Assembly: GCF_014651635.1 (NCBI RefSeq)
Contig: NZ_BMXG01000009.1
Span: forward strand, 62,001 to 126,000
DNA length: 64,000 nt
Reading direction: 5' to 3'
Source of the DNA: Cerasicoccus arenae
GTDB lineage: Bacteria > Verrucomicrobiota > Verrucomicrobiia > Opitutales > Cerasicoccaceae
The notes beneath the pieces are model-generated. The model was given only the letters and a program-made list of their open reading frames with translations. It searched no databases and was not told the DNA's origin. The position numbers and the translations under genes are program-made. This document shows, piece by piece, positions 36,792 to 58,534 of the stretch (position 1 is its first letter; every line of letters begins with the position of its first letter).

Positions 36792-36803
36792 GCAACTAGT
36801 TGC
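36792..36803. promoter_or_regulatory. GCAACTAGTTGC palindrome between moxR and the PEGA gene
   Basis: A perfect 12-bp palindrome in the 247-nt divergent region, 131-142 nt upstream of the MoxR start and 106-117 nt upstream of the PEGA gene start. The same sequence occurs at 53643, with variants at 50761, 53772 and 58523. Which side it controls is unknown. Confidence 0.6.
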
Positions 36804-36908
36804 GAAAGATTATGGCGATACTTTGCCCAATTTCGAATCGGTGGCCGGAAAGTAAATGGTGAGTAATTTGCCTTTGAAACGAAGGGGAAGTTGATTACGC
36901 TGTAATTC

Positions 36909-38021
36909 ATGCGGACATCGTTTTTTCGTTTTCTAAGTCTCTGTTTACTCAGCCTCGCCACCACGACCTTCGGACAAACCGAAGGGCGGCGAACTGCTGT
37001 CTTTGTCAACAACTTGGCTGGGGTCGAGCTAGCCGACAAAGCCAATGCTCTGGAGTCCCTGCTCGCGGCAAATCTCAATGGACAAGGCTTCTCCGTCATC
37101 AGCCGACAGGAGGTGGCCAATTCACTGGAGAACGACCCTGCCCAGACCAATCTAGGCCGCGCACTGGCGTCGAGTTCCTCCGCGCTGCGGCTCGCGCAGA
37201 CGCTGGATGCTGATTACCTGCTAGTGGCCAACCTAGTCTCCTTCGGCAGCAAACAAATTGCCTATCGCGGGTATGACGTTGCCACGGCCAACACCACCTA
37301 TGTCCTTCGCGTATCCTATGGCCTACTGGAAGCCAGTGGCGGCGCAGGGCTGGTTGGCGAAGAAATCACCGTCTCCGAAATGCTTCGCCAGGATGAGAGC
37401 ATCAACATTGTGGACACCGACCTGCTCAACGGGCTGATTACCCAAGCCGCCGCGCTCATTGCCAAGAATGCCCGCGAGGAAGCCCAACTCGGCAATATTC
37501 CCGTCGCTCCCGCACTCGCAGCGCCAGTTAGTTTCGCCATCACCCCTCGCCTTCAGGACATCGCACTGCCCAACGTCATTATCGACGAAAACAACGTCGT
37601 CACCCTGACCGCCGAGAAGTTTCCCATCGAGGCAACCGGAGTGGACATTGAGCTAGACGGCGTGGTCTTAGGGAGCGCGCCAGGCACCTTCACCGCCCGC
37701 CCTGGCCTGCACCAACTTCGCCTGACCCGCGACGGCTTCGTCTCCTGGGAGCGCAACGTGAACCTCTACGACGGCTTCGTCCTCGTCGCGCAATTGAACT
37801 TTTCCGCTGATGGCCAGCAACAATGGCAGGAGCTCTCCGGCTTCCTCCAAGAACTGCAAACCGGTCGCGAACTCAATGACGCCGAAGCTGAGAAACTCCG
37901 CGGCGAAGCCGAAGCGCTGCGCCAGAGCGGTTTCCGCGTAGACACCAATCAAGCGCCGTCGTTCATCTATGAGAACAGCCTCTGGGGGAACCCATTTCCC
38001 GTTCCCATGGTCAATGAGTAA
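36909..38021 (+). CDS. Secreted PEGA-domain protein, CsgG/LpoB-like N-terminal domain
   Basis: A 370-aa exported protein (signal peptide ending TTTFGQT). Residues 25-195 follow the pattern of CsgG/LpoB-type proteins that report on the state of a bound partner (RRTAVFVNNLAGVELADKANALESLLAANL, ADYLLVANLVSFG). A PEGA beta domain is at about 240-300 (VTLTAEKFPIEATGVDIELDGVVLG...GLHQLRLTRDGFVSWERNV). The C-terminus is acidic and helical. It heads a plus-strand unit with the DUF4177-like and second CsgG-like gene, at 22- and 27-nt spacings. Function inferred as envelope protein; no catalytic motif. Confidence 0.65.
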   Translation: MRTSFFRFLSLCLLSLATTTFGQTEGRRTAVFVNNLAGVELADKANALESLLAANLNGQGFSVISRQEVANSLENDPAQTNLGRALASSSSALRLAQTLDADYLLVANLVSFGSKQIAYRGYDVATANTTYVLRVSYGLLEASGGAGLVGEEITVSEMLRQDESINIVDTDLLNGLITQAAALIAKNAREEAQLGNIPVAPALAAPVSFAITPRLQDIALPNVIIDENNVVTLTAEKFPIEATGVDIELDGVVLGSAPGTFTARPGLHQLRLTRDGFVSWERNVNLYDGFVLVAQLNFSADGQQQWQELSGFLQELQTGRELNDAEAEKLRGEAEALRQSGFRVDTNQAPSFIYENSLWGNPFPVPMVNE

Positions 38022-38043
38022 TCATACATAACGATAAGCCACC

Positions 38044-38361
38044 ATGAAACTGTTTCCCATCTTTCTGATTTCAATAGCCAGCACGCTCCTCTTCGCCCAA
38101 GAAGAGTATCCAATCCCAGTTTCGTCTTACCACGAACCGATCCAACGAACCAGAGAGGTACCGACCAAGTGGGAATATAAGATTGTTCAAAATCAGATGA
38201 CTGAGGAATCCATGAATGCTTTGGGTGAGCAGGGATGGGAACTCGTCAGTTTATCAGTCACAGAATCCAGTTCAGCCAGGGGGAATAGTCTCCTATACAA
38301 CTATGTCTTCAAACGGCAAAAAAACACCCTGTTACTTCGAAAAAGAGTAACAGCCGAATAA
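38044..38361 (+). CDS. Small secreted DUF4177-like protein
   Basis: A 105-aa protein with a signal peptide (STLLFAQEEY). The sequence WEYKIVQNQMTEESMNALGEQGWELVSL is typical of DUF4177, followed by NYVFKRQ. The start context CCACCATGAAACT is the same as that of the next gene at 38389, the two possibly sharing a translation signal. Part of the plus-strand unit with the PEGA and CsgG-like genes. Function unknown. Confidence 0.7.
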   Translation: MKLFPIFLISIASTLLFAQEEYPIPVSSYHEPIQRTREVPTKWEYKIVQNQMTEESMNALGEQGWELVSLSVTESSSARGNSLLYNYVFKRQKNTLLLRKRVTAE

Positions 38362-38388
38362 ATTCGCCCCTTCCATCGTTTAACCACC

Positions 38389-39261
38389 ATGAAACTCGCT
38401 CTATCCGCCCTCGCCTTCCTCAGTCTCGCTCTCACCACGCAGGCGGACAAGCCCACACTGGCCATCACACCGGTAAATGTCTCGCCCGCCGTCGCCCAGT
38501 CCAAAGCCAACCCAGATGAAAAGGTGGCTCTACCACAAGTCGTCGAGGCACTCCAAGGCCAGCTCATCAACGCATTCGGGCAGACAGGCAAATTCACTGT
38601 CGTCAGTCGGACGGACCTCCCCCCTGTCATCTCAGAGCAAGTCCTTGGGCAATCCGGCAACCTCGACTCAAGCAGCGCCGCCAAACAGGGTAAAATCGCT
38701 GGCGCGAGCTACGTGCTCGTCGTCGGCATTGACTTTTTTAACCTCTACACCGAGCGCGCTAATTTTGCCTCCATTGCCCGATCACAGGTGAGCAGTATCC
38801 TGCGAATCAATGCAGTGTCTCGCCTCTATGACGCCACCACCGGCGCGCTAATCGCCAGCGACAGCACCACCGTCAACGACCAAGACTTCCAGCAGTACTT
38901 TGCCTTTGCTGAACGCGAAGGGAATCTGGAGACCGTCGTCTATCTCCAAGCCGCGCGAGCTCTTGCCGAGCAAATCGCCACCAATCTGACCAACGACCTC
39001 TACCCAGCCAAAGTCGTCGCTAAATCGGGCAAACAGATCACCATCAATCAGGGCTCGGCCAACGGTCTTACCTTCGATAATTCCCTAGTCGTTTACGCCG
39101 TTGGTGCCCCCATGACGGACCCCGACACCGGGGCCGCGCTTGGTCAGGAAGAAATCTTACTTGGCTATGCGGACCTCGTCCGTATCGACGAACGCACCTC
39201 CATTGCAATGCTCAAGGAAGACAACGGCGTCGAGCGCGGTCACATCGTCCGCTTTGAATAG
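38389..39261 (+). CDS. Secreted CsgG-like (curli-assembly-type) protein
   Basis: A 290-aa exported protein (signal peptide ending TTQADK) with the CsgG-like pattern: GQLINAFGQTGKFTVVSRTDLPPVISEQ, GASYVLVVGIDFFNLY, RLYDATTGALIASDST. The C-terminal quarter is a beta-rich extension with a GSANGLTFDNSLVVYAVG motif. It is the last gene of the plus-strand trio and stops 18 nt from the pyruvate kinase stop (convergent). No lipobox is present, unlike true CsgG, so an outer-membrane pore role is unlikely. Confidence 0.65.
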   Translation: MKLALSALAFLSLALTTQADKPTLAITPVNVSPAVAQSKANPDEKVALPQVVEALQGQLINAFGQTGKFTVVSRTDLPPVISEQVLGQSGNLDSSSAAKQGKIAGASYVLVVGIDFFNLYTERANFASIARSQVSSILRINAVSRLYDATTGALIASDSTTVNDQDFQQYFAFAEREGNLETVVYLQAARALAEQIATNLTNDLYPAKVVAKSGKQITINQGSANGLTFDNSLVVYAVGAPMTDPDTGAALGQEEILLGYADLVRIDERTSIAMLKEDNGVERGHIVRFE

Positions 39262-39279
39262 CCCCCCCTGGGCCCTAAA

Positions 39280-40713: not shown

Positions 40714-40960
40714 AGGCAGACGCGTTTGGGTTGCATGGTTCTAAAGCATGCAATGCGCCAACTGCCAGCCAAGATTCAAGCCCACCAACATAGATTCAGT
40801 AATTGTGCCCACAAAAGAAGGAAATGTTTACCCTGGCGTAACAGGCAGGCTAGACATTTGGTTGGCAATTTTTAATAGCTATGGCAATTTATGCGCTGTA
40901 ATTTCAGTGTAGAAAGCAGGCAATGTCTGCTTATCCACCCACATTTTTTCTAATTTCCCA

Positions 40961-43072
<2,112 letters not shown>

Positions 43073-43241
43073 AATCAGCTCAGATCATTACCTCAATGCC
43101 TGCAGGGTATCTGCGAATCCTCGCCACTTCATTTTTTACGGATAAAAAGATCAATGGACACTCATTCAGGAGTATAGTATTTCCTAACTTCGTCCTTGAC
43201 CAGCAAAGCCCAAAATGATGTTTGTTTCAGCTTTACTGGAT

Positions 43242-43406: not shown

Positions 43407-44144
43407 TTATGTGCTTTGACGGCGACGCCAGATCATTACGCCGCTGAGGATCAATACTGCCATGCCCGCTGCTGTCGATCCTGGCTCAGGAACAAAGTTG
43501 ATCTGGCCAGTACTGCTGAAAGTCGCTGGGTCGACCCCTGAGAGTGAATTAAAGTCATTGGCAACAAAATCGAGGTCAAACGTGCCGCCAGTCAATATCG
43601 CGATTTCATCCATAAAGGCTTGACCAGCAACGGAATTGGCAGTCAAAACTGCAGATCCAGAACCGACTGCACTGGGGTCCGCATTATTCGGCACTTCAAT
43701 GAGGAACTCGGTGATATAGCCAGTGGCCCACTCAACGCCATTGTATGAAAATGTCAAATTAGTTGGTGCCGTAAGACCAAGATCGTCGTAACGATAATCT
43801 TCGTAACCGGGCGATGCTGGGCCAGGAGACTGCGTCACTGAGTCGCCCACTCCTACACCAAGTAGATCCATCGGACCAAAACTCCAAGTCAACAATGTGA
43901 TATCTAGGCCACCACCGCCCGGATCAAATAGGCTGAAACCCGTTTGAGTAGCACCAGATGCGCCACTCTCACTCGGAGCGCCCGCATAGTCGTTGATAAT
44001 CTCTTTGAACATCACCGTTGGGCCGACCCAAGCTGGGCCACTTCCATCGTTTACGTTGGTGATCCCGTCCGTGTAGGTAATGAATGCAGCCGACGCTGAT
44101 AGCGAAGATAAACAGATGAAGCAGGTAGTTAGCAGTGTTTTCAT
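43407..44144 (-). CDS. PEP-CTERM secreted protein
   Basis: A 245-aa secreted protein with an N-terminal signal peptide (LSASAAF) and a PEP-CTERM tail: FVPEPGST, a hydrophobic helix (AAGMAVLILSGVMIW) and RRRQ. PEP-CTERM proteins are processed by exosortase and typically associate with exopolysaccharide. The middle domain is beta-rich and acidic without a recognised family. No exosortase gene is in the window. Confidence 0.85.
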   Translation of the reverse strand: MKTLLTTCFICLSSLSASAAFITYTDGITNVNDGSGPAWVGPTVMFKEIINDYAGAPSESGASGATQTGFSLFDPGGGGLDITLLTWSFGPMDLLGVGVGDSVTQSPGPASPGYEDYRYDDLGLTAPTNLTFSYNGVEWATGYITEFLIEVPNNADPSAVGSGSAVLTANSVAGQAFMDEIAILTGGTFDLDFVANDFNSLSGVDPATFSSTGQINFVPEPGSTAAGMAVLILSGVMIWRRRQST

Positions 44145-45000: not shown

Positions 45001-46009
45001 CATCGACCTCCGAATTTGCCAGTTGCGGGTTAAGGGCAACAGCTAAAAGTTCAGCGCCCCAAACCACCACAAAAATTAAAAACATCACGAACAGCAGCGC
45101 ATACTGAATAACAAAAACATCTCGGTCGAGCACTGCACCAACAAGGTACCGGCCCATCCCCGGCCAAGCGAACACAGTCTCAGTCAACACCGAACCACCC
45201 AACAACAGGCCAAAGCTCGTTCCCAAAGCGATAATCAACGGAGCTCCGAGCAGCCGTAAACCATGCCTGAGCCAGATGGCCGCGTGGGAAAGCCCCTTGG
45301 CCCGCAAAGCAATAACCAACCGCTGCCAGCGTGGCTCGTGCAACCGTGCACGCAACAATCCGCTAACCACTGCTGCCGGAAAAAATGACAGGCAAAACGC
45401 TGGTAACGCTAAATGATGCAGCGCCGAAACAAGTGCCGCACCATCCCCCGATCGAATTGAGTCGATAACTAAAAAGCCCGTACCACTCGGCCGATCGAGC
45501 ATAAAGTTGAATTGCCCCGAGACCGGAAACGCCCCACACCAGACGGCCCCCACGATGATCATCAGAAGACCGAGCCAGAAGATCGGCACGGTGAGGCCCA
45601 GTGCCCCGAGTACCGCGGGCATTTTTTTCGCCCAGCCCCATGGTAACGCCTCCCCCAAAAGTGTCGTCGCCAAGCCCATCAGCGTCCCGAGAACCAGCGC
45701 AATAAGGCTAAGTTCCAAGGTTGCGGGTAGTCGATTGGAGACCTCATCAGCAACAGGCCTCTGGTTAAGAATGCTCGCCCCCCAATCGCCTCTCAGGAAG
45801 TTGCCAAGGTAGTTCAGGTATTGAGTGCGCCAAGGCAAGTCCAGACCGAGCGCCGTTTCGATCTCCCTTGTTCGCTCGGGGTCTGGTGCTTTTTGCGCGA
45901 GCAGCACTCCATCGCCCAACGCCAACCGTGATGCGCCAAACAGCAAAGCACTCGCCGTCAGAAACAGCGCCAGCAACAGCAAAGACTTGCGCAGCACGTA
46001 AGCGACCAT
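44990..46009 (-). CDS. Oligopeptide-type ABC transporter permease (DppB-like)
   Basis: A 339-aa permease from ATG 46009 (MVAYVLRKSLLLLAL; a GTG at 46030 is an alternative). Six transmembrane helices with DppB signatures: LGLDLPWRTQYLNYLGNFLRGDWGASILNQRPV and VLTETVFAWPGMGRYLVGAVLDRDVFVIQYALL. It overlaps the next permease gene by 11 nt, so the pair is a heterodimeric permease. The ligand is unknown; partners may be elsewhere. Confidence 0.88.
   Translation of the reverse strand: MVAYVLRKSLLLLALFLTASALLFGASRLALGDGVLLAQKAPDPERTREIETALGLDLPWRTQYLNYLGNFLRGDWGASILNQRPVADEVSNRLPATLELSLIALVLGTLMGLATTLLGEALPWGWAKKMPAVLGALGLTVPIFWLGLLMIIVGAVWCGAFPVSGQFNFMLDRPSGTGFLVIDSIRSGDGAALVSALHHLALPAFCLSFFPAAVVSGLLRARLHEPRWQRLVIALRAKGLSHAAIWLRHGLRLLGAPLIIALGTSFGLLLGGSVLTETVFAWPGMGRYLVGAVLDRDVFVIQYALLFVMFLIFVVVWGAELLAVALNPQLANSEVDDAH
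45006..45011 (-). promoter_or_regulatory. Strong Shine-Dalgarno (GGAGGT) before the second permease
   Basis: GGAGGT on the minus strand lies 5 nt upstream of ATG 45000. Most other starts in the window show no comparable site, which decides between the two tandem ATGs here. Confidence 0.75.
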
Positions 46010-46292: not shown

Positions 46293-47039
46293 CTATAGCT
46301 TCTCGGTGTAAGTTAGCCAAACATGCCCCGGCGGAGGCTCACCGAACACCTTGATTTCATCTTCTGTATAAGTGTGTCGCATGCCACTGGGCGAAAAAAC
46401 CAAAACACCAGTTACTCGCTCGCTTGGTCGCAGCATCGCCACACTTTGATAAAGCATTTGCCAACCAGTAGATCCACTCTCAGCAACTTGAACTGAAACT
46501 CTGTTCTTTCGATCAGGTTCCGGTTGTAGTATTTTTGCCTCCCCCGGATCGACGGTTGCGCGAATATCATCCAAAGCAATTGCCATTGAGCGTTGGCCGA
46601 GATTCAACACACGAAATGACCGCTCGGGAAATTCTCGTGTGTCATCATCATAATAAACGTTTTGAAAGCCGCTTTCACCTCCGGTAAGCCGGATCACCGA
46701 GAGAACGGAGGTCGAGTCATCTTCCGTCGGAGATGGTGCCGTGAGCGTTGCTACCTTTACTCGGGTAAGTTTCTGCTCAGGATCAACAGAAGAAACGTTC
46801 TTATAGATTTCCAATCGTTCCCCCGGACTGACTTGAACAGGACTACTGATTGAGTAAGGAACGTTACTTATCTGCTTGTATTGATTGCCATCTTTCAAGA
46901 AAAGCGCTCCGCCGGATTCATCAATAAAGACGAATCGCATGCTCACCTTATTCCCAATTGGCGCAGCATTCAAAGCGACAGTAGGACATAAGCACAGCAA
47001 TGCCTGAAAAGTCAAAAATATTAATAATTTACGATTCAT
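46293..47039 (-). CDS. Secreted protein of unknown function, coupled to the prepilin-like protein
   Basis: A 248-aa exported protein (signal peptide ending ALNAAPI). It is beta-rich throughout (SMRFVFIDESGGALFLKDG, VLSVIRLTGGESGFQNVYYDDD, FRVLNLGQRSMAIALDDIRATVDPGEAKI) with no family I recognise. The ATGA overlap (47036-47039) with the prepilin-like 1179-aa gene indicates coupled translation, so it is likely a partner in the same surface assembly. Downstream on the same strand only intergenic sequence follows before the permease operon. Confidence 0.55.
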   Translation of the reverse strand: MNRKLLIFLTFQALLCLCPTVALNAAPIGNKVSMRFVFIDESGGALFLKDGNQYKQISNVPYSISSPVQVSPGERLEIYKNVSSVDPEQKLTRVKVATLTAPSPTEDDSTSVLSVIRLTGGESGFQNVYYDDDTREFPERSFRVLNLGQRSMAIALDDIRATVDPGEAKILQPEPDRKNRVSVQVAESGSTGWQMLYQSVAMLRPSERVTGVLVFSPSGMRHTYTEDEIKVFGEPPPGHVWLTYTEKL

Positions 47040-50000
47040 AACTCATCATGATCAAGCCACCTGAAAGAGACGATTTGGTAGCGGCGACCAAAAGCAATAT
47101 TCTTAGAATCAGTGGGATCACTATATGCATCATCAACTGACGACACATAATCTGGAAGTCTCTGCACGACCGCCTCGCACCAAGATTGAGATTCAACTTT
47201 TTGGCTGATCGGATTGACCACGTCCCCATAAGCGCGGATTCGAAAAGTATCAGATCGCGCTGTAAGATATGGCCCCAGAGCCGAGAGCACATCTGCTTGA
47301 AGTAGATAGCCAGGAGAGCCAACCATTGTGGACACCTTCATGTAATCTCTCTCAGCGTAGCGATTTGCATCAAACTTGGGCTTAATCTTATCGAAACTAT
47401 GGCTGATGGTGTTGATTTGAGATTCAAAATCGTCGCTATGGATGGTCGCATCGATTGCGGACTGCAACGCGCCACTCAGTCCGAGACCATAGACATCATA
47501 ATTTCCGGGTATAAGGCGGCGGTTAACGAAATCAGACATTGATAGAAATGGTCCACGAAGTCGCACCTGCAAAACAATCTCATTGGCGAGCTGATCGATC
47601 TGATCGGTTGTTAAATTACGAAACCCTCTCCATGAGTCCTCAGTGGTCACTGTATCTACGACATTTGTCGCTCCTGACCGATGAATTGTCCGCGTGAAAG
47701 GTGCCGTCAAATTTTCGGTGTCAATTTCACTTCCGATCTTGATATCACGCAGACTCGATAGAACCGCTTTCCATGCTTCTGGTGAGGTGGAATTCACATT
47801 GAATGCACCTTCGCTAATAAGGTTCTTAGCCGCCATACGGCTATTTTCTTGTTTAGTGGCAGACCCACTTCCACGGTAGAGTGACTCGTCAGCCTTTGAT
47901 TCATCATCCAGTGAACGAAATGGCCTATATCGTGCGTTGACTAAGGTATCGGTGTTGAAATCGAATTCGCCGGAAGCTGGATAAGAAGATAAATAAAACC
48001 GGTCCCAAAGTATTTCATTCCAAATATAAGAACCATCGTAGTGCGTACCTGAATACGGCGACTCGAAGAGCTTATCTCGACTGACTAAGTAATGAGGATA
48101 TGAATTGGAAATCGGGTAATTGACCTGCCAAGACTGAACCGATGTCTTATCACTTCCGGTCGTCCGGAGATCTACTCGGTCAATGAATGCGTTGGTATTT
48201 AAGTGCTGGAGCTGCCCAAGCGACGTCAACGGATTTTTAGGATCTGGTATCGAATAGAGTAGGTTTTCAAAACCAACGTCAGAATCCAAAAATGGTGACG
48301 GTGCCAAGGTATTATAACTACCCGTTCCCGTAGCGATCGGCCCCCAACGAACGTTTGTATAATTACCGGGCTTCATTAGCAGGTGCGAATGGTAATACCC
48401 TTCGTTACCCGGATATCCCTTTTTCTGATGAACCGCACCCCATTCCGTCAGGTGATTTCTCGAGGTCGCACTATGATACCCAGTGATGTAATTCGTTCGA
48501 TAATTTCGCTCATAAAACAAACCAGTTCGCGTAATGTTATGGACGATATCCGAAAGCGAGCAGGTCAGCCCTGTACCTTTCATCTCATTCCCATTTATGG
48601 GATTATCCGCATTCATGGGGTAAACATATATGCCATCAAAGTCCGTAGTCCCGCCCGGATCAGCTACGTAATGACCTGTAACAATCTGGAGTAATTTGCG
48701 GTCCCTTTCGTTTGGATCATAATCCATGTAAAGCTTGGTCGTATAACTCGAGCTACCATATAAAATGGCGTGAGTATTGGGTGGCGTGATGCTGACCTCC
48801 GTATTATAGGTCAAGTGAGCATCCGGTGAGAAATCATTAACCATGATTACTTCGAATTCACGCTGGGCGGCAGTAGATTTTGGAATTGGAACGGTGGCTA
48901 AAAACTCTTCAACAGTAAAAATTTGAGCTACACCTGCTTCCATGCCAGAACTTCTCAATACGAGCTTGATCTCTCCAAGCCCACCATTCGGCAACAGACT
49001 TATACTATTCTCTTTGAAATCATCAGGTTCAGGATCCAGCGGGTCATCCGTAGGTTCTAATTCGTCAAACCCGATCTTCGGCTGATTGCTAGCGAAACGT
49101 ATCGTATAGTCAGACGGACCAAGCGGTACGCTGTAGGGATTGGCCAAAACTACGAGTGGATAAAAATTGACCCAAATTTGACCGTCCTGAATTCGTAATC
49201 CATAATACAACTTCGAGTGAACCACAATGGGATGAATCCCGTGCTGTGTCGACGTTAACAGCCTTGGGACTGCCTGCCCCCGGTCATTAAAAACACCGGC
49301 TGGCACATCCCCAACTTGATTACCCATATTGTTAAAAGACCACAGCATTTCCCAGGTCGGAGTATATGCCAGAATGCCCGGCGCTACATAAGGGTCTACC
49401 TTAACGAACGGCATACCAGTGGGGACTTCCGCCAGCGGCGACACCTCCTCATTCAGCACGCGGTTATAATCAGCAGATGGATCAATGACCGGCCCATCAT
49501 ATACAGCAGCAACCGCTGATCGAAGTGAGTTGATATCTGATTGGCCCAAAATATAGGAAAGGTCACGCTTTAGCCCGCCATGCTTTACATCTGCGAGCAC
49601 GCCTCGTGAATATACCGTCACATCATGAATGTTTTCATCGATTTCATCCCGAAAGTTGTCGTCGCTATAAAGTAGCCCCAGTTGATCCAACTCAAAAATG
49701 CCACTTAGCTTTGCGTCATTCGGCTGATAGATCGCAGCAAAACCGTCGTCCTTGCTTGTCGCAATCGCCTCAGCTGCGACCCGCTGAGCCGAAGCAATAC
49801 GGCGAAAGTAAGTGTCACTCGACGCCAGCTCTCCAGCATAGGGATCAACCAGATTAACGCGCGCTTTAACACCTTCGTCACCAACCCAATAAGCGTAGTG
49901 GCCAGTCGTTAACCCGGAATCAGTGGTTAAAGAAACTTCGGGAGCCGTCACCGCACGATTCATCGCATTCAAGTCAGTTCCGTTTCCAGGGCTAACCAGT

Positions 50001-50575
50001 ATTCGATGCGGCTTACCGTTGATATCGAGCACAGACTCACGAGGAGAACTCGTCAAAGTGAGACCTGTAATTTGATCGATGGGGTCAAAGGTAACTCCAT
50101 TCTCGTTGCCGCTGACCAGCCAGGATTTAAGGTCGGGCAAGGCATTTGCTGTCGTTGGGTTTTGCGGATCAAAATCATCCTCATTACCATTGCTCCATGC
50201 CCCAACCCAATGACGGTTTCGGCGATCATTCCAATAGTCATCAAACTTCACCATCTCAGCAGTTGAGTCCATATCCACTCCCACATCGACGCTCTCCGGT
50301 ATGAGAATATCAGCCTGACCAGTCACTCGTTGATCCGGCCCAGTATGACGCTGTAATTCGCCAATCGCAACGCTCAGTGCGAGTATCGCATTTTGTCGCG
50401 CTTCACTATTTCGGGCCGCATTGGTTGCTGCATGTACCTCTACTTTAGTTAAAGTTGCCATTGAAAGCAGCAATAACAGAATAAAAGCGGCCAGTGACAT
50501 TGCCACGATGATAGCGAAACCTCGCTTGTTTTGGGATAAGTACCTTCTATGTACGATTCTGCTGTTAGTCTTCAT
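47036..50575 (-). CDS. Giant PilX/prepilin-like protein (verrucomicrobial type)
   Basis: An 1179-aa protein with a prepilin-like N-terminus: NKRGF followed by a hydrophobic helix (AIIVAMSLAAFILLLLLSMATL, residues 21-42) and a long helix ending ALSVAIGELQRHTGPDQRVTGQADI (about 66-90). This start is a recurring one in Verrucomicrobia (Verru_Chthon-cassette-A-like), related to type IV pilus PilX/GspK pseudopilins. The remaining ~1100 aa are beta-rich with no clear domain; a helical segment (FRNLTTDQIDQLANEIVLQVRLRGPFLSMSDFVNRRL) near 970-1010 resembles GspK-type SAM regions. Followed directly by the 248-aa protein. Minor pseudopilins B, C, D of such cassettes are not adjacent. Confidence 0.65.
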   Translation of the reverse strand: MKTNSRIVHRRYLSQNKRGFAIIVAMSLAAFILLLLLSMATLTKVEVHAATNAARNSEARQNAILALSVAIGELQRHTGPDQRVTGQADILIPESVDVGVDMDSTAEMVKFDDYWNDRRNRHWVGAWSNGNEDDFDPQNPTTANALPDLKSWLVSGNENGVTFDPIDQITGLTLTSSPRESVLDINGKPHRILVSPGNGTDLNAMNRAVTAPEVSLTTDSGLTTGHYAYWVGDEGVKARVNLVDPYAGELASSDTYFRRIASAQRVAAEAIATSKDDGFAAIYQPNDAKLSGIFELDQLGLLYSDDNFRDEIDENIHDVTVYSRGVLADVKHGGLKRDLSYILGQSDINSLRSAVAAVYDGPVIDPSADYNRVLNEEVSPLAEVPTGMPFVKVDPYVAPGILAYTPTWEMLWSFNNMGNQVGDVPAGVFNDRGQAVPRLLTSTQHGIHPIVVHSKLYYGLRIQDGQIWVNFYPLVVLANPYSVPLGPSDYTIRFASNQPKIGFDELEPTDDPLDPEPDDFKENSISLLPNGGLGEIKLVLRSSGMEAGVAQIFTVEEFLATVPIPKSTAAQREFEVIMVNDFSPDAHLTYNTEVSITPPNTHAILYGSSSYTTKLYMDYDPNERDRKLLQIVTGHYVADPGGTTDFDGIYVYPMNADNPINGNEMKGTGLTCSLSDIVHNITRTGLFYERNYRTNYITGYHSATSRNHLTEWGAVHQKKGYPGNEGYYHSHLLMKPGNYTNVRWGPIATGTGSYNTLAPSPFLDSDVGFENLLYSIPDPKNPLTSLGQLQHLNTNAFIDRVDLRTTGSDKTSVQSWQVNYPISNSYPHYLVSRDKLFESPYSGTHYDGSYIWNEILWDRFYLSSYPASGEFDFNTDTLVNARYRPFRSLDDESKADESLYRGSGSATKQENSRMAAKNLISEGAFNVNSTSPEAWKAVLSSLRDIKIGSEIDTENLTAPFTRTIHRSGATNVVDTVTTEDSWRGFRNLTTDQIDQLANEIVLQVRLRGPFLSMSDFVNRRLIPGNYDVYGLGLSGALQSAIDATIHSDDFESQINTISHSFDKIKPKFDANRYAERDYMKVSTMVGSPGYLLQADVLSALGPYLTARSDTFRIRAYGDVVNPISQKVESQSWCEAVVQRLPDYVSSVDDAYSDPTDSKNIAFGRRYQIVSFRWLDHDEL

Positions 50576-50720: not shown

Positions 50721-50772
50721 ACATATGGCATGCCCATATGTGTTTCAACTCCGCCGCTATGCAATTAGTTGC
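50721..50772 (-). promoter_or_regulatory. Two palindromes upstream of the prepilin-like gene
   Basis: ACATATGG-N5-CCATATGT (50721-50741) is an 8-bp inverted repeat, and GCAATTAGTTGC (50761-50772) is one of the five GCAA-N4-TTGC palindromes of the window. They lie about 150-200 nt upstream of the 50575 start in a 286-nt spacer. Confidence 0.55.
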
Positions 50773-50861: not shown

Positions 50862-51749
50862 TTATTGGTATTTATGGAAATCTTGGAGGTCAAAAATCTT
50901 CCATGACTTTTCATCAGTGCGTCGATATTCCAGCACCAGCCCAATACTCTTGGCTGGTCCTTGATAGTAGGCTAAGTGAAAACGCTGCTTTCCTGCCTTA
51001 AGCACAGCTTTCCCAGTTTTAGCCTGCATGCCATGGTTACCGTCGTTGTCGATAATTTCTTTGCCGTTGATTTCAAGGATTGAACCGTCATCGGAACTGA
51101 GGCGAAACTCATATTCACCCGCCAATTCTTGTGGCCATTCCAGCACCGCTTTGAAGTCGATGGCAAACCACTCAAACTGATCGGTGACTCCGGGAAATCC
51201 ATCGGTAAAATCCCGGACAGTCAGATTGAATGCGTAACTATAAATCTTTTGAGTTTGCCGACGCTTCTTCTTCACATCCTTGAACCATTCGTTATCTGAA
51301 CGTAATCGACTGATGTGATCGAAGGTATAGATCGTGCCGACCCAAGAATGATCAAGTTGTTTAACGGTTCCGAATGAATCGATGTTTAAGGATTGTTTTT
51401 TAAGCATCCCTTGTAATTGGCCAATTCCACCTGCTCCCGAAATTTTGCCAATTCCGATACTATCGCTGGATTGAATTACCGGGACTTCCATATCCAGCGG
51501 CATTATCTCAGCCATACTCACTACCGATCGCGTCATAACGGGCGCACTAGCCGTACTGGAAAGCTGAACTTTAATTTCGGGTGGCGGTGGTGGAATAGCC
51601 GAAGGAATGTCTGGGGCAACTAATTCTGGCTCTGTTGCCCGTAAGGACTGAAAGATAGTAAATCCGCCCAGCGCGAATAAGGCGACGAAGTGCGCAATCA
51701 AACTGACAACTAGCACTTCAACTAGTGGTAAGTTTACTTTACGTCGCAT
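50862..51749 (-). CDS. Membrane-anchored PA14-like protein
   Basis: A 295-aa protein with a TonB-like N-terminus: a basic start, one transmembrane helix (residues 12-35, VVSLIAHFVALFALGGFTIF), then a Pro-rich linker (IPSAIPPPPPEIKV). The C-terminal 140 residues show a PA14-type beta barrel (AVLEWPQELAGEYEFRLSSDDGSILEINGKEIID, FHLAYYQGPAKSIGLVLEYRR), a carbohydrate-binding module in many secreted glycosidases. It follows the GH5 gene at 27 nt on the same strand, so the two are likely an operon. Role inferred: sugar-sensing or enzyme anchoring at the envelope. Confidence 0.7.
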   Translation of the reverse strand: MRRKVNLPLVEVLVVSLIAHFVALFALGGFTIFQSLRATEPELVAPDIPSAIPPPPPEIKVQLSSTASAPVMTRSVVSMAEIMPLDMEVPVIQSSDSIGIGKISGAGGIGQLQGMLKKQSLNIDSFGTVKQLDHSWVGTIYTFDHISRLRSDNEWFKDVKKKRRQTQKIYSYAFNLTVRDFTDGFPGVTDQFEWFAIDFKAVLEWPQELAGEYEFRLSSDDGSILEINGKEIIDNDGNHGMQAKTGKAVLKAGKQRFHLAYYQGPAKSIGLVLEYRRTDEKSWKIFDLQDFHKYQ

Positions 51750-51776: not shown

Positions 51777-53408
51777 TTAGCGCATTTTTTGAGATTTAAA
51801 TTTTTTGCCAGAAAACGCTTCGATGACTTGCTCGCCCCAGAATGGCGTAGGCGTGTAGTTCCAATCAAGAAGAAGGCGGGGTGAAGCACGCGGATGAAAG
51901 CACCACGCAGTCCAATTGAGCCGGTAATCTTGAATCACTGCCAACATTGCCGGCACCCAAGTCTCGGCATCCTCCTGTGCACTGGCTGCCATCCATTCCA
52001 TCTTATTAATGTCGGCCCCGACTTCACCAACGAAGATCGGGTATTTATCAGCGACTTTAAGGAATTTGTTCACCCAGCCCTTTTTCCATGGATAGACATG
52101 CGTCGAATACATGACTCCGTTAGCTTGTGGGTCATCCTTAACCGCATAGCCATCAAGAATACCAGAAAGGTCATAGGCCCAATCCAACCCACCGATAACA
52201 ACAATATTTTTGGCACCCGTGGCGCGGACTGTATCGACCATAGCCTGCATTCCGGGCGACTCAAATCCCTGGGCATTCTTAACCTTTTCATCCGCAGTTA
52301 GAAATGCGTCCTCATCGGCCTTTTTGCCTTTTTCCGCCACAAATCCCCCATTAAGCCAAACATCCCAAGTAATGCCATGCGGCTCATTAATCAGATCAAA
52401 TAGGACGGCTGGGTGGTTCGAATAGCGAGTCGCAGCATCCTTCCAAAACGTTAAATACTCGTCCTTGGGAGCACGATAGCGGTGGAGGTCCAGCACGACA
52501 TACGCGCCACGATTTGCAGCGAGTGTAATGACGTTGTCTACAAGCTTACGGTAACTCTCACCATCATCATCGAACCAATAGGAATCCTTGACCGGTAGCC
52601 GGATGACATTCGCACCCCACTTATCAATAGCAACTTCTGTCGATTTTAATACATTTTCGCCGCGCGCACTCCATTCGAGACTGGCAACATTAACACCTTG
52701 GAGCCAAACTTCCTTGCCTTCAGGATTGTGTAGACGATTCCCGACAACTTTCAGCATCGGTGGCCATTGGTTAGTCTTGGGTGCTTCGACAGCAACGGTG
52801 AGGCGCGCCTTTTCGGCAGCTTTAGCATCAGCCTTAGCACGAACAGCTGTGGGATCAACTGGCTCCAGTCTGATATCGTCCAAGTCCATAACCCCTTGTT
52901 TGACCTGAAAGAGGCTGGGCATATATTCGAGGGCAACTGCGTCCTCTGGAACCAGAAACACGACTGATTTTTCCTGCCACTCATTTGTTGATTTCCTCAA
53001 ATAAGGATGAGGAGGAGAAGTCGATGCCTTGCCGCCACTGGCGTTCTTAAAGTTCATCATAATGCGGGCGTCGTACCATGCTTTGCTGCCTGGTTTTAAA
53101 TTTGTTGTCCGCCAGCGCCAGCTAAGTTTGAGCGCTTGAACTCCCGCAGGGATATCGACCACTCGATAAAGCATCGCGGTTTTACCCGGCTCCAAAGAAG
53201 TCAGCCGAGCATAAGTATTCCCGCCGTCTTTTTCGTAACTAAGCGATCCACCGGGGCCACTCCAATCAGCGGGACCGCTAGTGCCATTTCTCTCAAAGTC
53301 ACCGTTGGATATTAAGCTGTCCGAAGCATGGAGGCCTGTCACAAAAATCGATCCGAAGCCCACTGAGAACAAGATTAAGAATAAGGATATTTTTCTTTTA
53401 ATATTCAT
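51777..53408 (-). CDS. Secreted GH5-family glycoside hydrolase with N-terminal CBM
   Basis: A 543-aa enzyme. A signal peptide (to about HASDS) precedes a CBM-like beta-sandwich (residues 33-190: LISNGDFERNGTSGPADWSGPG). The GH5 barrel runs about 215-535: WLQGVNVASLEW, catalytic acid/base E342 in FDLINEPHG, H437 in STHVYPW and nucleophile E462 in IFVGEVGAD. Substrate is a beta-glucan or mannan; sub-family not assigned. A PA14 gene follows at 27 nt. The start faces the second GH5 gene (54016) across a 607-nt region holding two palindromic operators. Confidence 0.85.
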   Translation of the reverse strand: MNIKRKISLFLILFSVGFGSIFVTGLHASDSLISNGDFERNGTSGPADWSGPGGSLSYEKDGGNTYARLTSLEPGKTAMLYRVVDIPAGVQALKLSWRWRTTNLKPGSKAWYDARIMMNFKNASGGKASTSPPHPYLRKSTNEWQEKSVVFLVPEDAVALEYMPSLFQVKQGVMDLDDIRLEPVDPTAVRAKADAKAAEKARLTVAVEAPKTNQWPPMLKVVGNRLHNPEGKEVWLQGVNVASLEWSARGENVLKSTEVAIDKWGANVIRLPVKDSYWFDDDGESYRKLVDNVITLAANRGAYVVLDLHRYRAPKDEYLTFWKDAATRYSNHPAVLFDLINEPHGITWDVWLNGGFVAEKGKKADEDAFLTADEKVKNAQGFESPGMQAMVDTVRATGAKNIVVIGGLDWAYDLSGILDGYAVKDDPQANGVMYSTHVYPWKKGWVNKFLKVADKYPIFVGEVGADINKMEWMAASAQEDAETWVPAMLAVIQDYRLNWTAWCFHPRASPRLLLDWNYTPTPFWGEQVIEAFSGKKFKSQKMR

Positions 53409-53642: not shown

Positions 53643-53654
53643 GCAACTAGTTGC
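53643..53654. promoter_or_regulatory. GCAACTAGTTGC palindrome (GH5 divergent region, site 1)
   Basis: Perfect 12-bp palindrome, 235-246 nt upstream of the minus-strand GH5 and 362-373 nt upstream of the plus-strand GH5. Same sequence as at 36792. Confidence 0.6.
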
Positions 53655-53771
53655 ACAGACCAAGGCACAGATAGATGAAAACAGAATTATTTTGATTACT
53701 TATATCCCAAAATACATGAGTTTTAATTATCATTTTCTGACTAAAATCCATTAGCCTACTGGCATGATCCT

Positions 53772-53783
53772 GCAATCAATTGC
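53772..53783. promoter_or_regulatory. GCAATCAATTGC palindrome (GH5 divergent region, site 2)
   Basis: A GCAA-N4-TTGC element, the exact complement of the one at 58523. It lies 233-244 nt upstream of the plus-strand GH5 gene and 129 bp from site 1, a spacing that would permit looping between two bound dimers. Confidence 0.6.
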
Positions 53784-54015
53784 GCAATGCTGACGTTGAT
53801 CAGTAGCGACGTGTGTGCTTATCTGCTGGCACTAAGCAATCATTGTATTGCAATCCCCCGCCTCTCCCACTCGCCCCCCTACTAGCCTCACGTGCTCCCC
53901 TACTCATCCGTGCTCAATTCGCACCTCTCTACGCGTACCCCGAGCACTGGACACGAGAAGCTACTCCATTTTTTAGTATATTAACCCTAATAATAACAAC
54001 TAAAAACAACAAGAT

Positions 54016-57015
54016 ATGTCCCCCCTATCTAAAATAAAAACGCGCGCTTTGCTCATCGTGATTACGATGTTCATGGCTTCTTGGCTACACGCCGAAACTG
54101 TCTATCTAGGTTCCCCGCACATACTACAATACTTCCATCAAGGTCCTTGGAATGTACAAGGTGGCGAATCCACAGTCGCCCATACATTCACCTTGCCAGA
54201 CAATGGTGGCACACAGGTGAATTTCTCATTCGAGAATGCCCTGAAAGGGGTAGATGTCACGGATCCAAATGCTCCTGACACCACAGGTGCCCTACCCGCA
54301 ACTTGGAGTCATCATGGCACCAACGGTATGGCGGCTGGTGAAGCGACGGTTGCCCGCTTCGATAGCGGCGACCAATTCTCACTCGTTGTAGACCATCAGA
54401 TTGCGATTGAGGCATTCACCATGCATGAATACCAAGGCGGTGAAGAAGTTCGCATTACCTGGACCGACGAGGGTATCGCCAAATCTCTGAATCTCATTAT
54501 GACCACCGCAAACGGTGTCATCACAATTGGAGGCAGAAGAGGCAATTACCCCCTATCCGATCCCATCATCGCTGATGCTAACACGCCGATTATATTCACA
54601 AATGTGACTCCTCCAAGCTCTGACCACTTGAGGCTCTGCAGCATCGCGTGCTCGTTGGTTCTCAATGCACCGCCTTACTACGAACCAAGTGATGACGGAT
54701 TTGTCCAAATGTTTGGCGTCAACATTGCTGGAGCTGAATTCAATTCCGGCAATTTACCAGGAACTCATGGATACAACTACTTCTATCCCAATGAGGACGA
54801 AGTGGAGTATTATCACAGCAAGGGACTGAACTTAATTCGCCTGCCCTTCAAATGGAAGCGCCTACAGAATTCACTCTATGCGCCACTAAGCACCAACGAA
54901 CTGGCTTTAATCGATGGCGTCCTTGCGCTCGCGGCAGCACGCGATATGAAGGTCATCCTCGATATGCATGACTATGGTCATTATGATGATGATGACATTA
55001 AAATCGGGAACCCTGCTCTGCCCCACAGTGCTTATGCTGACGTATGGCTGAAAATCGCAGATCACTTCAAGAATAACGATGCCATCTATGGCTACGGCTT
55101 AATGAATGAACCAGTCGGAATGGCCGCCGGAGGCGGCAACTGGCCAGTCGCTGCACAAACAGCAACGGACGCTATTCGTTCCGTGGATGCAAAAACATGG
55201 ATCATCGTTGGAGGTGAAAACTGGAGTAGCGCCACTAAATGGCGTGCATCAAACCCCAATCTCGATGTGATCGATCCATCAGACAAACTGATCTATGAAG
55301 CCCACTGCTATTTTAGCAATGCAGGAAACGATAATTACGGCTCCTGGAGTGCAGAGCAAGTCTACCCCTATGAAGCCATCCACCGCGTGGAGCCATTCGT
55401 CCAATGGCTTAAGGAACGTGACGCACGCGGTTTCGTCGGAGAATATGGTATTCCCGGAAACGAGCCGCGCTGGAACGACGTCTTGGAAAACTTTATGGAG
55501 TACCTAGGTGCTAATGGCTTGAGCGCCACATACTGGGCAGGTGGCCGCTACTGGAACAACTATTCTCTCGGTGTCCATCCCTCAAGCAACTATACGGTCG
55601 ACCGCCCACAGATGGCCGTTCTGACAAAAGACTTCGCCTACACCGTCACGCAGGAAGAGGTAGATATCGCCTATGCCAAGATCGCAGTCGCCAGCTCCAT
55701 TCAAAATAGCTCCAAGAGTGCAGACAAGGCAGTCGATGGTGATGATGCCACATTCTGGAGCAGTTCATTTGCTGACGACGAATGGATCTACGTCGACCTT
55801 GAGCAGTCCTACGGCTTCGATCGCGTCGAAATCGTTTGGGAAAATGCCTATGCCAGTGAATATCGCATTCAGGTATCCAATGACGCCGCAAGCTGGACCG
55901 ACATTTATTCGACCACCACAGGAAACGGAGGCACAGACACCCTCACTGCACTTGCTGGCAATGGTCGCTACGTTCGGCTTTACTGTGATGTCCGTGGCAC
56001 AGGCTGGGGCAATGGTGTCCGTAGTTTTAGAATATACAGCAGTGAGTCCGGTGTTCCCGTAGCAAGTAACCTAACTGGAACGGACATTGGATCTACCGGC
56101 GCAGCTGGAAATAATAGCGAGAGTGGAGACAGCTACACCATTCAAGCGAGTGGCTACGATATCTATGGCACTGCCGATAGCTTCCGCTTCCTTCATCAAA
56201 CAATGACAGGAGACGGAGAGATTACAGCTCTTGTATCGAGCTTGACCGCCACCCACAGTTGGGCCAAAGCAGGCTTGATGATGCGAGAATCTACCGATGC
56301 CAATGCAAGGAACGTCTTTGTCTTAGCAACCAACGGTACCGCAACAAACATGCAATACCGCTCGACCACCGGTGGCTCAACCGCGAACATATCTGGCACC
56401 GGAACCATCCCACACTGGCTTAGACTAAGCCGCAGCGGGGACACATTTACGGGCTATCACTCAAGTGACGGTGTCAACTGGACGACCATTGGCGCTCAAA
56501 CCATCGCTGGCATGCCTACGAACTTGGAGATTGGCCTCGCTGCCACCTCCCATAACAACAGCGTGCTAACGACTGCAGTCTTCGATAACGTCACTCTACC
56601 CGGAGACACGACACCCACTGTGCCAACAAACCTCACTGAAGGCAAAACAGCCACCGCCAGTACTGAACAAAACTCGTCACGGTCTGCCGACATGGCCGTT
56701 GATGGAGATGGTGTTACTCGGTGGAGTAGCATATATGCCGACAACGAATGGATTTACGTGGATCTCGGACAAAGCTACGACATCGACGAAGTTGTCCTTT
56801 CTTGGGAAGCAGCCTATGCTAGCGGCTATCGAATCCAAGTCTCGGATAATGCATCAACCTGGACAGACATCTATACCACGACGACCGGCAACGGCGGTAC
56901 GGATCAACTCACGAACCTCAGCGGCAACGGGCGCTACGTGCGCATTCTCTGCGAGACACGTGGGACGTCATGGGGCAACTCCCTCTATGAAATCGAAGTT
57001 TATGGCAGCCTCTAG
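54016..57015 (+). CDS. Modular secreted GH5 enzyme: GH5 - CBM32 - beta-sandwich - CBM32
   Basis: A 999-aa secreted enzyme. Signal peptide 1-26; a beta-sandwich (27-215); a GH5 barrel (about 230-540) with catalytic acid/base E365 in GYGLMNEPVG and nucleophile E476 in RGFVGEYGIP; a first F5/8-type-C (CBM32-like) domain (about 555-682); a DUF1349-like laminin-G-type sandwich (about 685-860); and a second F5/8-type-C domain (about 872-998). The two CBM32 domains are close duplicates: both contain DEWIYVDL/NEWIYVDL, WTDIY and TTTGNGGTD. A terminator follows at 57107. Gene divergent from the other GH5; likely hydrolyses a beta-glucan or mannan, with CBMs binding polymer. Confidence 0.85.
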   Translation: MSPLSKIKTRALLIVITMFMASWLHAETVYLGSPHILQYFHQGPWNVQGGESTVAHTFTLPDNGGTQVNFSFENALKGVDVTDPNAPDTTGALPATWSHHGTNGMAAGEATVARFDSGDQFSLVVDHQIAIEAFTMHEYQGGEEVRITWTDEGIAKSLNLIMTTANGVITIGGRRGNYPLSDPIIADANTPIIFTNVTPPSSDHLRLCSIACSLVLNAPPYYEPSDDGFVQMFGVNIAGAEFNSGNLPGTHGYNYFYPNEDEVEYYHSKGLNLIRLPFKWKRLQNSLYAPLSTNELALIDGVLALAAARDMKVILDMHDYGHYDDDDIKIGNPALPHSAYADVWLKIADHFKNNDAIYGYGLMNEPVGMAAGGGNWPVAAQTATDAIRSVDAKTWIIVGGENWSSATKWRASNPNLDVIDPSDKLIYEAHCYFSNAGNDNYGSWSAEQVYPYEAIHRVEPFVQWLKERDARGFVGEYGIPGNEPRWNDVLENFMEYLGANGLSATYWAGGRYWNNYSLGVHPSSNYTVDRPQMAVLTKDFAYTVTQEEVDIAYAKIAVASSIQNSSKSADKAVDGDDATFWSSSFADDEWIYVDLEQSYGFDRVEIVWENAYASEYRIQVSNDAASWTDIYSTTTGNGGTDTLTALAGNGRYVRLYCDVRGTGWGNGVRSFRIYSSESGVPVASNLTGTDIGSTGAAGNNSESGDSYTIQASGYDIYGTADSFRFLHQTMTGDGEITALVSSLTATHSWAKAGLMMRESTDANARNVFVLATNGTATNMQYRSTTGGSTANISGTGTIPHWLRLSRSGDTFTGYHSSDGVNWTTIGAQTIAGMPTNLEIGLAATSHNNSVLTTAVFDNVTLPGDTTPTVPTNLTEGKTATASTEQNSSRSADMAVDGDGVTRWSSIYADNEWIYVDLGQSYDIDEVVLSWEAAYASGYRIQVSDNASTWTDIYTTTTGNGGTDQLTNLSGNGRYVRILCETRGTSWGNSLYEIEVYGSL

Positions 57016-57106
57016 GTTACCAGAGACCATTCCGGTTGAATCCTACTGAGCGTTAATCAATGGCTGAGAGAGGCCATTGAAACGTAGAGAAACAATAGTT
57101 TATAGA

Positions 57107-57142
57107 GGGTGCACGGCTTATTTGCCGTGCACCCTTTTTTTT
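57107..57142 (+). terminator. Rho-independent terminator after the GH5 gene
   Basis: An 11-bp perfect stem GGGTGCACGGC (57107-57117) / GCCGTGCACCC (57124-57134), 6-nt loop, then eight T (57135-57142). It follows the stop by 91 nt. Confidence 0.92.
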
Positions 57143-57152
57143 CATTTTTCTT

Positions 57153-57160
57153 CCCCCCCC
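57153..57160. repeat. C8 tract after the GH5 terminator
   Basis: Eight C, 10 nt after the T run of the terminator. Another of the G/C tracts found just outside terminators. Confidence 0.9.
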
Positions 57161-57283
57161 TCCCTCCCCGCCAGAGGCGAACGCATTTAAAGCCCACGTG
57201 TACCAAGCCCAAGTTTCACATCTGCTTGACCCACGTTCTGAGCAAATGGTTTAACGGCATGAAACGCCCAACAGAGTATCGAC

Positions 57284-57317
57284 AAAAAAGCGGCTTCCTG
57301 AATTCAGGAAGCCGCTT
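57284..57317 (-). terminator. Terminator of the PEP-CTERM gene (30-nt palindrome)
   Basis: A perfect palindrome of 30 nt centred on GAATTC (57288-57317) followed, on the minus strand, by six T (57284-57289). It lies 62 nt after the stop of the gene at 57379. The stem is unusually long and loopless. Confidence 0.85.
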
Positions 57318-57378
57318 ACTAAATTATTCTTTTAGAAAAGCCAGTGACTTTCTATGAGAATCAGTAAACCGAGGTACC

Positions 57379-58404
57379 TTATTTAGTTTGACGACGACGG
57401 ATTAATCCGACGGCCAGAACTGCAAAGCCGAAGCCAATTGCATAGTGTGATGACTCGGGGATCAGCGAAATGCTCGATCCGCCAATGCCAAAATCAGCAA
57501 CTGCGAATGCGCCGGCATTCACTGCACCATCAAGTCGAATACGATCGGTGAGAAGCGATGCAGCAAGACCCGAATCCACATTCTCAAGAATCAGTTGGCC
57601 GGAACTACCGGTTAGGAAGTTCAGATAGCCGTCAGCACCTGCAGTGATCCCATTGTCCGTCGTGCCGGAAATGGTTATGGTGCCAGCAGTGAAATTAATC
57701 GTGCTTGCCGCCGCGAGACTTAACAGCGTCGCACTGACGTCGCTACCAGAAATCGTTAAGTCAGCCCCTGCTTGTTGGAGCTGACCAGTGATATCCACCG
57801 AACCGCCACTAAAGGTCAGTATGCCAGCTGTAGGGGCATAGGTTTGACTGAAATTAACCGTGCCACCTTCAATCTGAAAATTGCCCAAGGACTCGATAAA
57901 AGCTGCTGTGATGTTGAGCTCACCCGAGCTTACTTTTATCGTTCCTGGAGCTCTCAGGTTAATGGCATTAGTCGTAACCGTACCACCATTGACATGAAAC
58001 AGCGTATTTCGATTGAAATCTCCTATCATCATTCTCGCAGAAGTTCCTGCATTGAAGCTACTACCCGAGTTGAAAATAAGAGTTGCGTCGCCGACCGTGT
58101 TGGTTCCGAACTTCATCCAATTGTTTCCAGTCGCTTGAATGAAGCTACCGCCATTCATGGTATATGTGGCACCACCACCAACAAGAAAATCCCCACCCGG
58201 AGTATAGACGACATCGCCAGAGTCGATAGTCACGCTGGTGCCCGATGTGGAGGTAGGAACGCCCGATGGGCTCCAGTTTCCAGCAGTTTGATAGCTGGTG
58301 TCAATGGCACCTGTCCAAACAGCTTGACCAAAAGCAGAGCTCGAACAAGCCACGCCTGCGACAAGGCATGCGATGGCTGGGGGGATAGAAGACTTTATTT
58401 TCAT
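57379..58404 (-). CDS. PEP-CTERM secreted beta-repeat protein (autotransporter-associated type)
   Basis: A 341-aa exported protein: signal peptide (SSSAFGQA), then repeated beta-coil segments characteristic of autotransporter-associated beta-strand proteins (AVWTGAIDTSYQTAGNWSPSGVPTS, GGSFIQATGNNWMKFGTNTV, GGTVTTNAINLRAPGTIKVSSGELNITA). It ends IPESSHYAIGFGFAVLAVGLIRRRQ, the Opitutae variant of the PEP-CTERM sorting tail. Probably surface-exposed via exosortase. The GCAA-N4-TTGC element at 58523 is 119-130 nt upstream. Confidence 0.8.
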   Translation of the reverse strand: MKIKSSIPPAIACLVAGVACSSSAFGQAVWTGAIDTSYQTAGNWSPSGVPTSTSGTSVTIDSGDVVYTPGGDFLVGGGATYTMNGGSFIQATGNNWMKFGTNTVGDATLIFNSGSSFNAGTSARMMIGDFNRNTLFHVNGGTVTTNAINLRAPGTIKVSSGELNITAAFIESLGNFQIEGGTVNFSQTYAPTAGILTFSGGSVDITGQLQQAGADLTISGSDVSATLLSLAAASTINFTAGTITISGTTDNGITAGADGYLNFLTGSSGQLILENVDSGLAASLLTDRIRLDGAVNAGAFAVADFGIGGSSISLIPESSHYAIGFGFAVLAVGLIRRRQTK

Positions 58405-58522
58405 GTAATTTTGGGGGTTATGGGATGTATCGTCGATTTAAACTAGCATTCAGTATAAATAAGCTAACTGAATTGTCAAAAAAACTATAAAACCACAGTT
58501 CGCAACGCAATAGGTCTGTCAT

Positions 58523-58534
58523 GCAATTGATTGC
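58523..58534 (-). promoter_or_regulatory. GCAATTGATTGC palindrome upstream of the PEP-CTERM gene
   Basis: Embedded in the longer inverted repeat ATGCAATTGATTGCAT (58521-58536), 119-130 nt upstream of the 58404 start. Complement of the 53772 site. Confidence 0.6.

What the first reader, a model, noticed from the sequence alone, without database searches (positions are those of the whole stretch)
36792..58534. Five GCAA-N4-TTGC palindromes, all intergenic, likely a shared regulator's operators
Seen: GCAACTAGTTGC at 36792 and 53643, GCAATTAGTTGC at 50761, GCAATCAATTGC at 53772 and its complement at 58523. All five are in non-coding spacers (roughly 5 kb of the window), where fewer than one would be expected by chance from 8 fixed bases. 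Four of five flank the prepilin-like gene, the two GH5 genes and the PEP-CTERM gene; the fifth lies between MoxR and the PEGA genes. Inference: a LacI-type or similar dimeric regulator co-ordinates surface and polysaccharide functions. No LacI gene is in the window.
Basis: partly seen in the sequence, partly recalled or inferred. Interest (0 to 1): 0.7.

Follow-up and report, generated by a model that had tools for sequence, protein, structure and literature searches.

The report
Operators of a LacI-type polysaccharide regulon
Four of the five short mirror-image DNA sites are very probably the docking sites of one sugar-sensing repressor, whose gene lies elsewhere in this Opitutales (Verrucomicrobia) genome and which probably controls cellulase-like enzymes together with surface proteins; it is a new but ordinary kind of regulon in a poorly charted phylum.

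Summary
All five palindromes exist at the stated coordinates; a sixth exact match (45979) is inside a gene. About 0.19 were expected in the window's 5.7 kb of intergenic DNA. Genome-wide the bare 12-mer is at chance level (129 places), but the refined class GCAAYNNRTTGC (34 places) is clustered: 10 lie in this window and in a 6.3-kb stretch of contig C14. That stretch holds a LacI-family gene with a site 46 bp upstream. Its orthologues (53-74% identity) in six related genomes are all surrounded by the same sites, and homologues of the window's GH5 genes and pseudopilin-like gene pair lie inside those LacI loci. A weight matrix trained only on relatives ranks 50761, 53643, 53772 and 58523 high. 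Genomes with the regulator have 1-15 GCAAYTARTTGC sites; 13 of 14 without it have none. Elsewhere in this genome the site precedes two more GH5 genes and an ExbB operon. The fifth site (36792, MoxR/PEGA) scores lowest of the promoter sites and is not conserved. Conclusion: a LacI-family regulon for polysaccharide breakdown and surface functions, undescribed as far as I could find, with an unusual non-CG operator centre. Binding and effector are untested.

The parts
50761..50772 (.). operator GCAATTAGTTGC, about 190 bp upstream of the 1179-aa pseudopilin-like gene (47036-50575, -)
   Evidence: exact match; score 24.2 with a matrix trained on relatives only, second highest in 339 kb scanned; homologous gene pairs in G001, G002 and G030 lie in the LacI locus, with sites just upstream in G001 and G002
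53643..53654 (.). operator GCAACTAGTTGC in the divergent GH5/GH5 intergenic region, about 240 bp upstream of GH5 51777-53408
   Evidence: matrix score 21.9
53772..53783 (.). operator GCAATCAATTGC in the same region, about 240 bp upstream of GH5 54016-57015
   Evidence: matrix score 19.8
58523..58534 (.). operator GCAATTGATTGC, about 120 bp upstream of the PEP-CTERM protein gene 57379-58404
   Evidence: matrix score 18.6
36792..36803 (.). GCAACTAGTTGC between MoxR (35537-36661) and the PEGA gene (36909-38021); doubtful member
   Evidence: lowest score of the window sites, 15.7; absent upstream of PEGA orthologues in G001, G002 and G003
45979..45990 (.). GCAAAGACTTGC inside a BPD_transp_1 permease gene; chance match, not part of the system
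47036..50575 (-). 1179-aa pseudopilin-like protein (weak hits to GspK and Verru_Chthon cassette protein A), probable target
   Evidence: 43-46% identical homologues in the LacI loci of G030, G002 and G001
46293..47039 (-). 248-aa partner protein overlapping the previous gene by 4 bp, probable same operon
   Evidence: homologues 35-43% identical in the same position in G001, G002 and G030
50862..51749 (-). 295-aa protein with N-terminal membrane segment, proline-rich stretch and PA14 domain, probable operon with the GH5 gene 28 bp upstream
51777..53408 (-). GH5 (cellulase family) glycosidase, probable target
   Evidence: PF00150 119.8 bits; 49-55% identical homologues in the LacI loci of relatives
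54016..57015 (+). GH5 glycosidase with two F5/8 type C modules, probable target
   Evidence: closest solved relatives are endo-1,4-beta-glucanases; N-terminal half 44-47% identical to GH5 genes beside LacI, including C14
57379..58404 (-). PEP-CTERM-like surface protein, probable target
   Evidence: C-terminus PESSHYAIGFGFAVLAVGLIRRRQTK; LacI loci of relatives also hold a PEP-CTERM gene with the site in front
58592..59722 (-). 376-aa protein weakly similar to oligogalacturonate lyase; membership in the regulon unclear, as its own promoter has no exact site
   Evidence: two homologues (64-73%) beside LacI in G057

Best explanation
The four sites at 50761, 53643, 53772 and 58523 are operators of a LacI-family repressor encoded on another contig (G000:C14:87886-88968, 360 aa). 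Shown computationally: the regulator has a LacI helix-turn-helix and a periplasmic-binding-protein-like effector domain; the same palindrome (consensus YGCAAYTARTTGCR) lies before its own gene and before the neighbouring GH5, GH-A-like, MFS sugar transporter and PEP-CTERM genes; site and regulator are conserved together in related genera. Inferred: a dimer binds the palindrome and represses the promoters; an oligosaccharide released from the target polysaccharide binds the effector domain and releases it, so that GH5 hydrolases, PEP-CTERM and pseudopilin-like surface proteins, ExbB/ExbD energy units and a sugar importer are made together. The substrate is probably a beta-linked glucan or mannan; this is a guess from GH5 relatives.
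For: Regulator found between the C14 sites, with a site 46 bp upstream of its start. Five sites within 6.3 kb on C14 and four within 7.8 kb here; random placement of the 34 YNNR places gives such clusters in 0.005% and 0.12% of simulations. Orthologues in G001, G002, G003, G030, G056 (three copies) and G057 all have sites nearby; 16 of 39 GCAAYTARTTGC places in seven genomes lie within 15 kb of the regulator gene, 0.3 expected. Genomes with the regulator have 7, 2, 9, 2, 3, 15 and 1 such sites; 13 of 14 without it have 0, including congeners of G056 (G041) and of G030 (G076); Mann-Whitney p = 1e-4, not corrected for phylogeny. A matrix trained only on relatives puts the four window sites among its top 12 hits in 339 kb of this genome. 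Window GH5 genes and the pseudopilin-like pair have homologues inside relatives' LacI loci. Stray intergenic sites precede GH5 genes on C7 and C13, an ExbB-ExbD operon on C21 and a prepilin-like gene on C1; the GH5 and ExbB genes have homologues inside relatives' LacI loci.
Against: No binding or expression data. The regulator is not linked to the window on the assembly. The genome has about 35 LacI-family hits, so a paralogue could share the motif. Sites at 50761, 53643 and 53772 are 190-240 bp from the start codons, further than the 30-140 bp usual for the family (PMC4052901). The operator centre is not CG. Relatedness inflates the statistics.
Confidence: 0.88

Rival explanations
1. The sites belong to a different LacI-family paralogue, for example one of the two on contig C9 outside the window (C9:138205, C9:148841), and the C14 neighbourhood is itself only a target.
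For: About 35 LacI-family hits in the genome. A paralogue on C16 (39% identical) shares the same hinge sequence SAFAS.
Against: No matrix hit above threshold in the sequence around the two C9 genes (L029, L030). No GCAAN4TTGC near the C16 paralogue. In all nine loci of the C14-type regulator the sites lie beside that gene.
Confidence: 0.05
2. The five sites are a chance cluster or a non-regulatory repeat.
Against: Held-out matrix ranking, co-occurrence with the regulator, homologous targets and intergenic position. Among YNNR places, 10 of 10 in the two clusters are in promoter regions, against 6 of 24 elsewhere (for one of the ten the ORF start was moved downstream to match orthologues).
Confidence: 0.03
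3. The regulator activates rather than represses, so the sites are activator sites upstream of the promoters.
For: Several window sites are far upstream (190-240 bp) of the start codons.
Against: Most LacI-family members are repressors that leave DNA on binding a sugar (PMC4052901). The site before the regulator gene itself is only 46 bp from the start.
Confidence: 0.1

Closest known systems
LacI-family local sugar regulons in RegPrecise (Ravcheev et al. 2014, PMC4052901)
   Same: LacI HTH plus Peripla_BP_3 domain, even palindrome in promoters, autoregulation, control of glycosidases and a sugar transporter
   Different: Operator centre mostly TA, not the CG found for 1173 of 1251 TFs with even motifs in that study; that survey covered seven phyla and its text does not mention Verrucomicrobia; targets include PEP-CTERM, pseudopilin-like and ExbB/ExbD genes
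PurR / PUR box of E. coli (from memory: ACGCAAACGTTTGCGT)
   Same: Half-site CGCAA with the same four-base spacer
   Different: Centre CG in PurR, TA or related here; purine genes versus polysaccharide genes; only a weak HTH-level match to the PurR family model
CcpA of Bacillus (PDB 1zvv, 1rzr)
   Same: Best solved relative over the HTH and hinge
   Different: Phe stands where CcpA has the hinge Leu that intercalates at the operator centre (role of the Leu from PMC5809078); no evidence for an HPr co-repressor here

Membership tests
LacI-family transcription factor and its regulon | LacI-type helix-turn-helix at the N-terminus of the regulator | tested here: met
   PF00356 53.6 bits, above cut-off
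LacI-family transcription factor and its regulon | periplasmic-binding-protein-like effector domain | tested here: met
   PF13377 28.2 bits, cut-off 26.5
LacI-family transcription factor and its regulon | palindromic operators in promoters, conserved with the regulator | tested here: met
LacI-family transcription factor and its regulon | CG pair at the centre of even operators (typical, not obligatory) | tested here: not met
   39 GCAAN4TTGC places in nine LacI loci: TA 15, AG/CT 11, AA/TT 7, AT 3, CA/TG 2, CG 1 (the CG one is inside a gene)
LacI-family transcription factor and its regulon | hinge-helix Leu that intercalates at the operator centre | tested here: not met
   Phe in all nine orthologues at the aligned position
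LacI-family transcription factor and its regulon | autoregulation (common) | tested here: met
   site 46 bp upstream of the lacI start, at the sequence level only
LacI-family transcription factor and its regulon | DNA binding released by a sugar effector | not testable with these tools
   needs binding assays
Verru_Chthon cassette (47036-50575) | score above the TIGR02600 cut-off | tested here: not met
   16.8 bits against 332.3, N-terminal 61 positions only

The most novel reading that the evidence does not exclude
A subfamily of LacI-type regulators in Opitutales carries a hinge Phe instead of Leu and reads operators with a TA-type centre instead of CG, a co-varying change in how the family recognises the middle of its site, and uses it to couple polysaccharide hydrolases to exosortase-sorted, pseudopilin and ExbB/ExbD surface machinery.
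Probability: 0.35. Interest if true: 0.5.

Novelty: new member of a known kind. Interest (0 to 1): 0.42.

Why it matters
I found no paper describing a LacI regulon in Verrucomicrobia, in open-access text only, and the main comparative study sampled seven phyla without naming it. The regulon links otherwise unassigned surface genes (pseudopilin-like, PEP-CTERM, PA14, ExbB/ExbD operons) to polysaccharide breakdown, which gives them a testable role. The Phe hinge with a non-CG centre is a simple, testable case of co-variation between a LacI-family hinge and its operator.

Tried and rejected
Bare GCAAN4TTGC count as a test: uninformative, at chance level genome-wide. Site 36792 as a regulon member: not supported. 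Site 45979: coding, chance. C1:57216 GCAATCAGTTGC: set aside, because it sits inside a G-run/C-run hairpin that looks like a terminator. C18:20263 and C9/C16 LacI genes as alternatives: coding, or without matrix hits. Paper search for PEP-CTERM palindromes: nothing relevant. 'Verru_Chthon' in papers: none held. Structure prediction of the conserved 352-aa neighbour of LacI gave a poor model (pLDDT 54), so no fold search was made; it has only weak GH53/GH113 matches.

Full report
OBSERVATION. A sixth exact match, 45979, is within a permease gene. The window holds 5,688 bases outside ORFs of 90 aa or more after overlap removal, and 0.19 matches were expected there. The whole-genome count of the bare 12-mer is 129, about what composition predicts, so counting alone proves nothing.

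REFINING THE MOTIF. Requiring the central bases seen in the window (GCAAYYARTTGC) leaves ten places in 4.13 Mb. Five are in this window (G000:C9:62001-126000) and two are on contig C14. The symmetric class GCAAYNNRTTGC has 34 places: 5 here, 5 on C14 within 6.3 kb, 24 elsewhere. I classified all 34 against ORFs. All ten in the two clusters are in promoter regions, against 6 of 24 elsewhere (Fisher p = 6e-5, clusters chosen post hoc). One C14 site (8725 in L025) overlaps a mechanical ORF start, but orthologues of that protein begin about 35 residues later, which puts the site about 100 bp upstream.

THE REGULATOR. Between the C14 sites lies a LacI-family gene (L025:11886-12968, C14:87886-88968) with HTH and Peripla_BP_3 domains. 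GCAATATGTTGC is 46 bp upstream of its start. Its neighbours are a GH5 glycosidase, a GH-A-like protein, a GDSL-like protein, an MFS_2 sugar transporter and a PEP-CTERM-like protein, with sites in the divergent regions between them.

CONSERVATION. The regulator has clear orthologues in three congeneric genomes (68-74% identity) and in G056 (three copies), G030 and G057, from three other families of the order. Matches in the remaining genomes are at 39% or less. Every one of the eight loci taken around these orthologues contains GCAAN4TTGC, mostly intergenic, with the same central preference. Homologues of the window's 1179-aa/248-aa gene pair lie in the LacI loci of G001, G002 and G030; homologues of window GH5 51777-53408 in six loci; and homologues of the N-terminal half of GH5 54016-57015 in the GH5 genes beside LacI, including C14. 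So genes that are split between C9 and C14 here are together in relatives. Across 21 genomes the site GCAAYTARTTGC occurs 1-15 times in the seven with the regulator, and not at all in 13 of 14 without it; G041 and G076, congeners of G056 and G030 that lack the regulator, have none. G022 has three without an orthologue and is the exception.

HELD-OUT TEST. A matrix built from 28 sites of the relatives only was run over 339 kb of this genome. The top 12 hits are all promoter sites, in C7, C9 (this window), C13, C14 and C21, and include 50761 (24.2), 53643 (21.9), 53772 (19.8) and 58523 (18.6). Site 36792 scores 15.7, below two coding hits. The matrix core was defined by the same 12-mer, so the test ranks centre and flanks rather than the core. 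The scanned set was not random: it includes the loci around known matches.

OTHER TARGETS. Outside the two clusters, intergenic sites precede a GH5 gene on C7 and another on C13, an ExbB-ExbD-ExbD operon on C21 and a prepilin-like gene on C1. The C7 and C13 GH5 genes have 71-79% identical counterparts, and the C21 ExbB 67-73% ones, inside relatives' LacI loci. These independent finds make a coherent set.

THE FIFTH SITE. PEGA orthologues (81-83% identity) in G001, G002 and G003 have no GCAAN4TTGC upstream. I count 36792 as unproven, probably chance.

MECHANISM. Inferred, not shown: a dimeric repressor released by an oligosaccharide. The hinge sequence DPLLSAFA.RRRG is constant in nine orthologues, with Phe where CcpA has Leu. 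In CcpA the hinge Leu intercalates at the operator centre (PMC5809078). The operators here almost never have CG at the centre, whereas 1173 of 1251 TFs with even LacI-family motifs do (PMC4052901); 78 do not, so this is a known minority. The link between Phe and the centre is a hypothesis. The substrate is a guess: the closest solved relatives of window GH5 54016-57015 are endo-1,4-beta-glucanases, and one relative's locus has a GH125 alpha-mannosidase.

VERDICT. The finding is real for four of five sites. It is a LacI-family regulon, new as far as I could find, and ordinary in kind.

Noticed in passing
L099:9890-11008 (G056:C84): The third lacI copy of G056 is interrupted by an in-frame TAG, while its operators remain; a possible decaying paralogue or sequencing error.
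   Followed up: no
window 47036-50575 with 46293-47039: A 1179-aa pseudopilin-like protein and an overlapping 248-aa partner with no family above cut-off are conserved as a pair in four genomes beside polysaccharide genes; possibly a surface or secretion module.
   Followed up: partly
L025:8828-9859 and orthologues: A 343-aa GH-A-like protein (weak GH53/GH113 similarity, no PDB sequence match) is conserved near lacI in eight of the nine loci; possibly a new glycosidase family.
   Followed up: partly
L123:109-3929 (G000:C21): ExbB-ExbD-ExbD operon followed by a 696-aa coiled protein, with the same operator in front.
   Followed up: partly
G022:C22:258953, C24:574861, C24:655124: Three GCAAYTARTTGC sites in a genome without a close orthologue of the regulator; unexplained.
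   Followed up: no
window 43407-44144: A second PEP-CTERM-like protein gene (TIGR02595 16.8 bits) without the operator.
   Followed up: no
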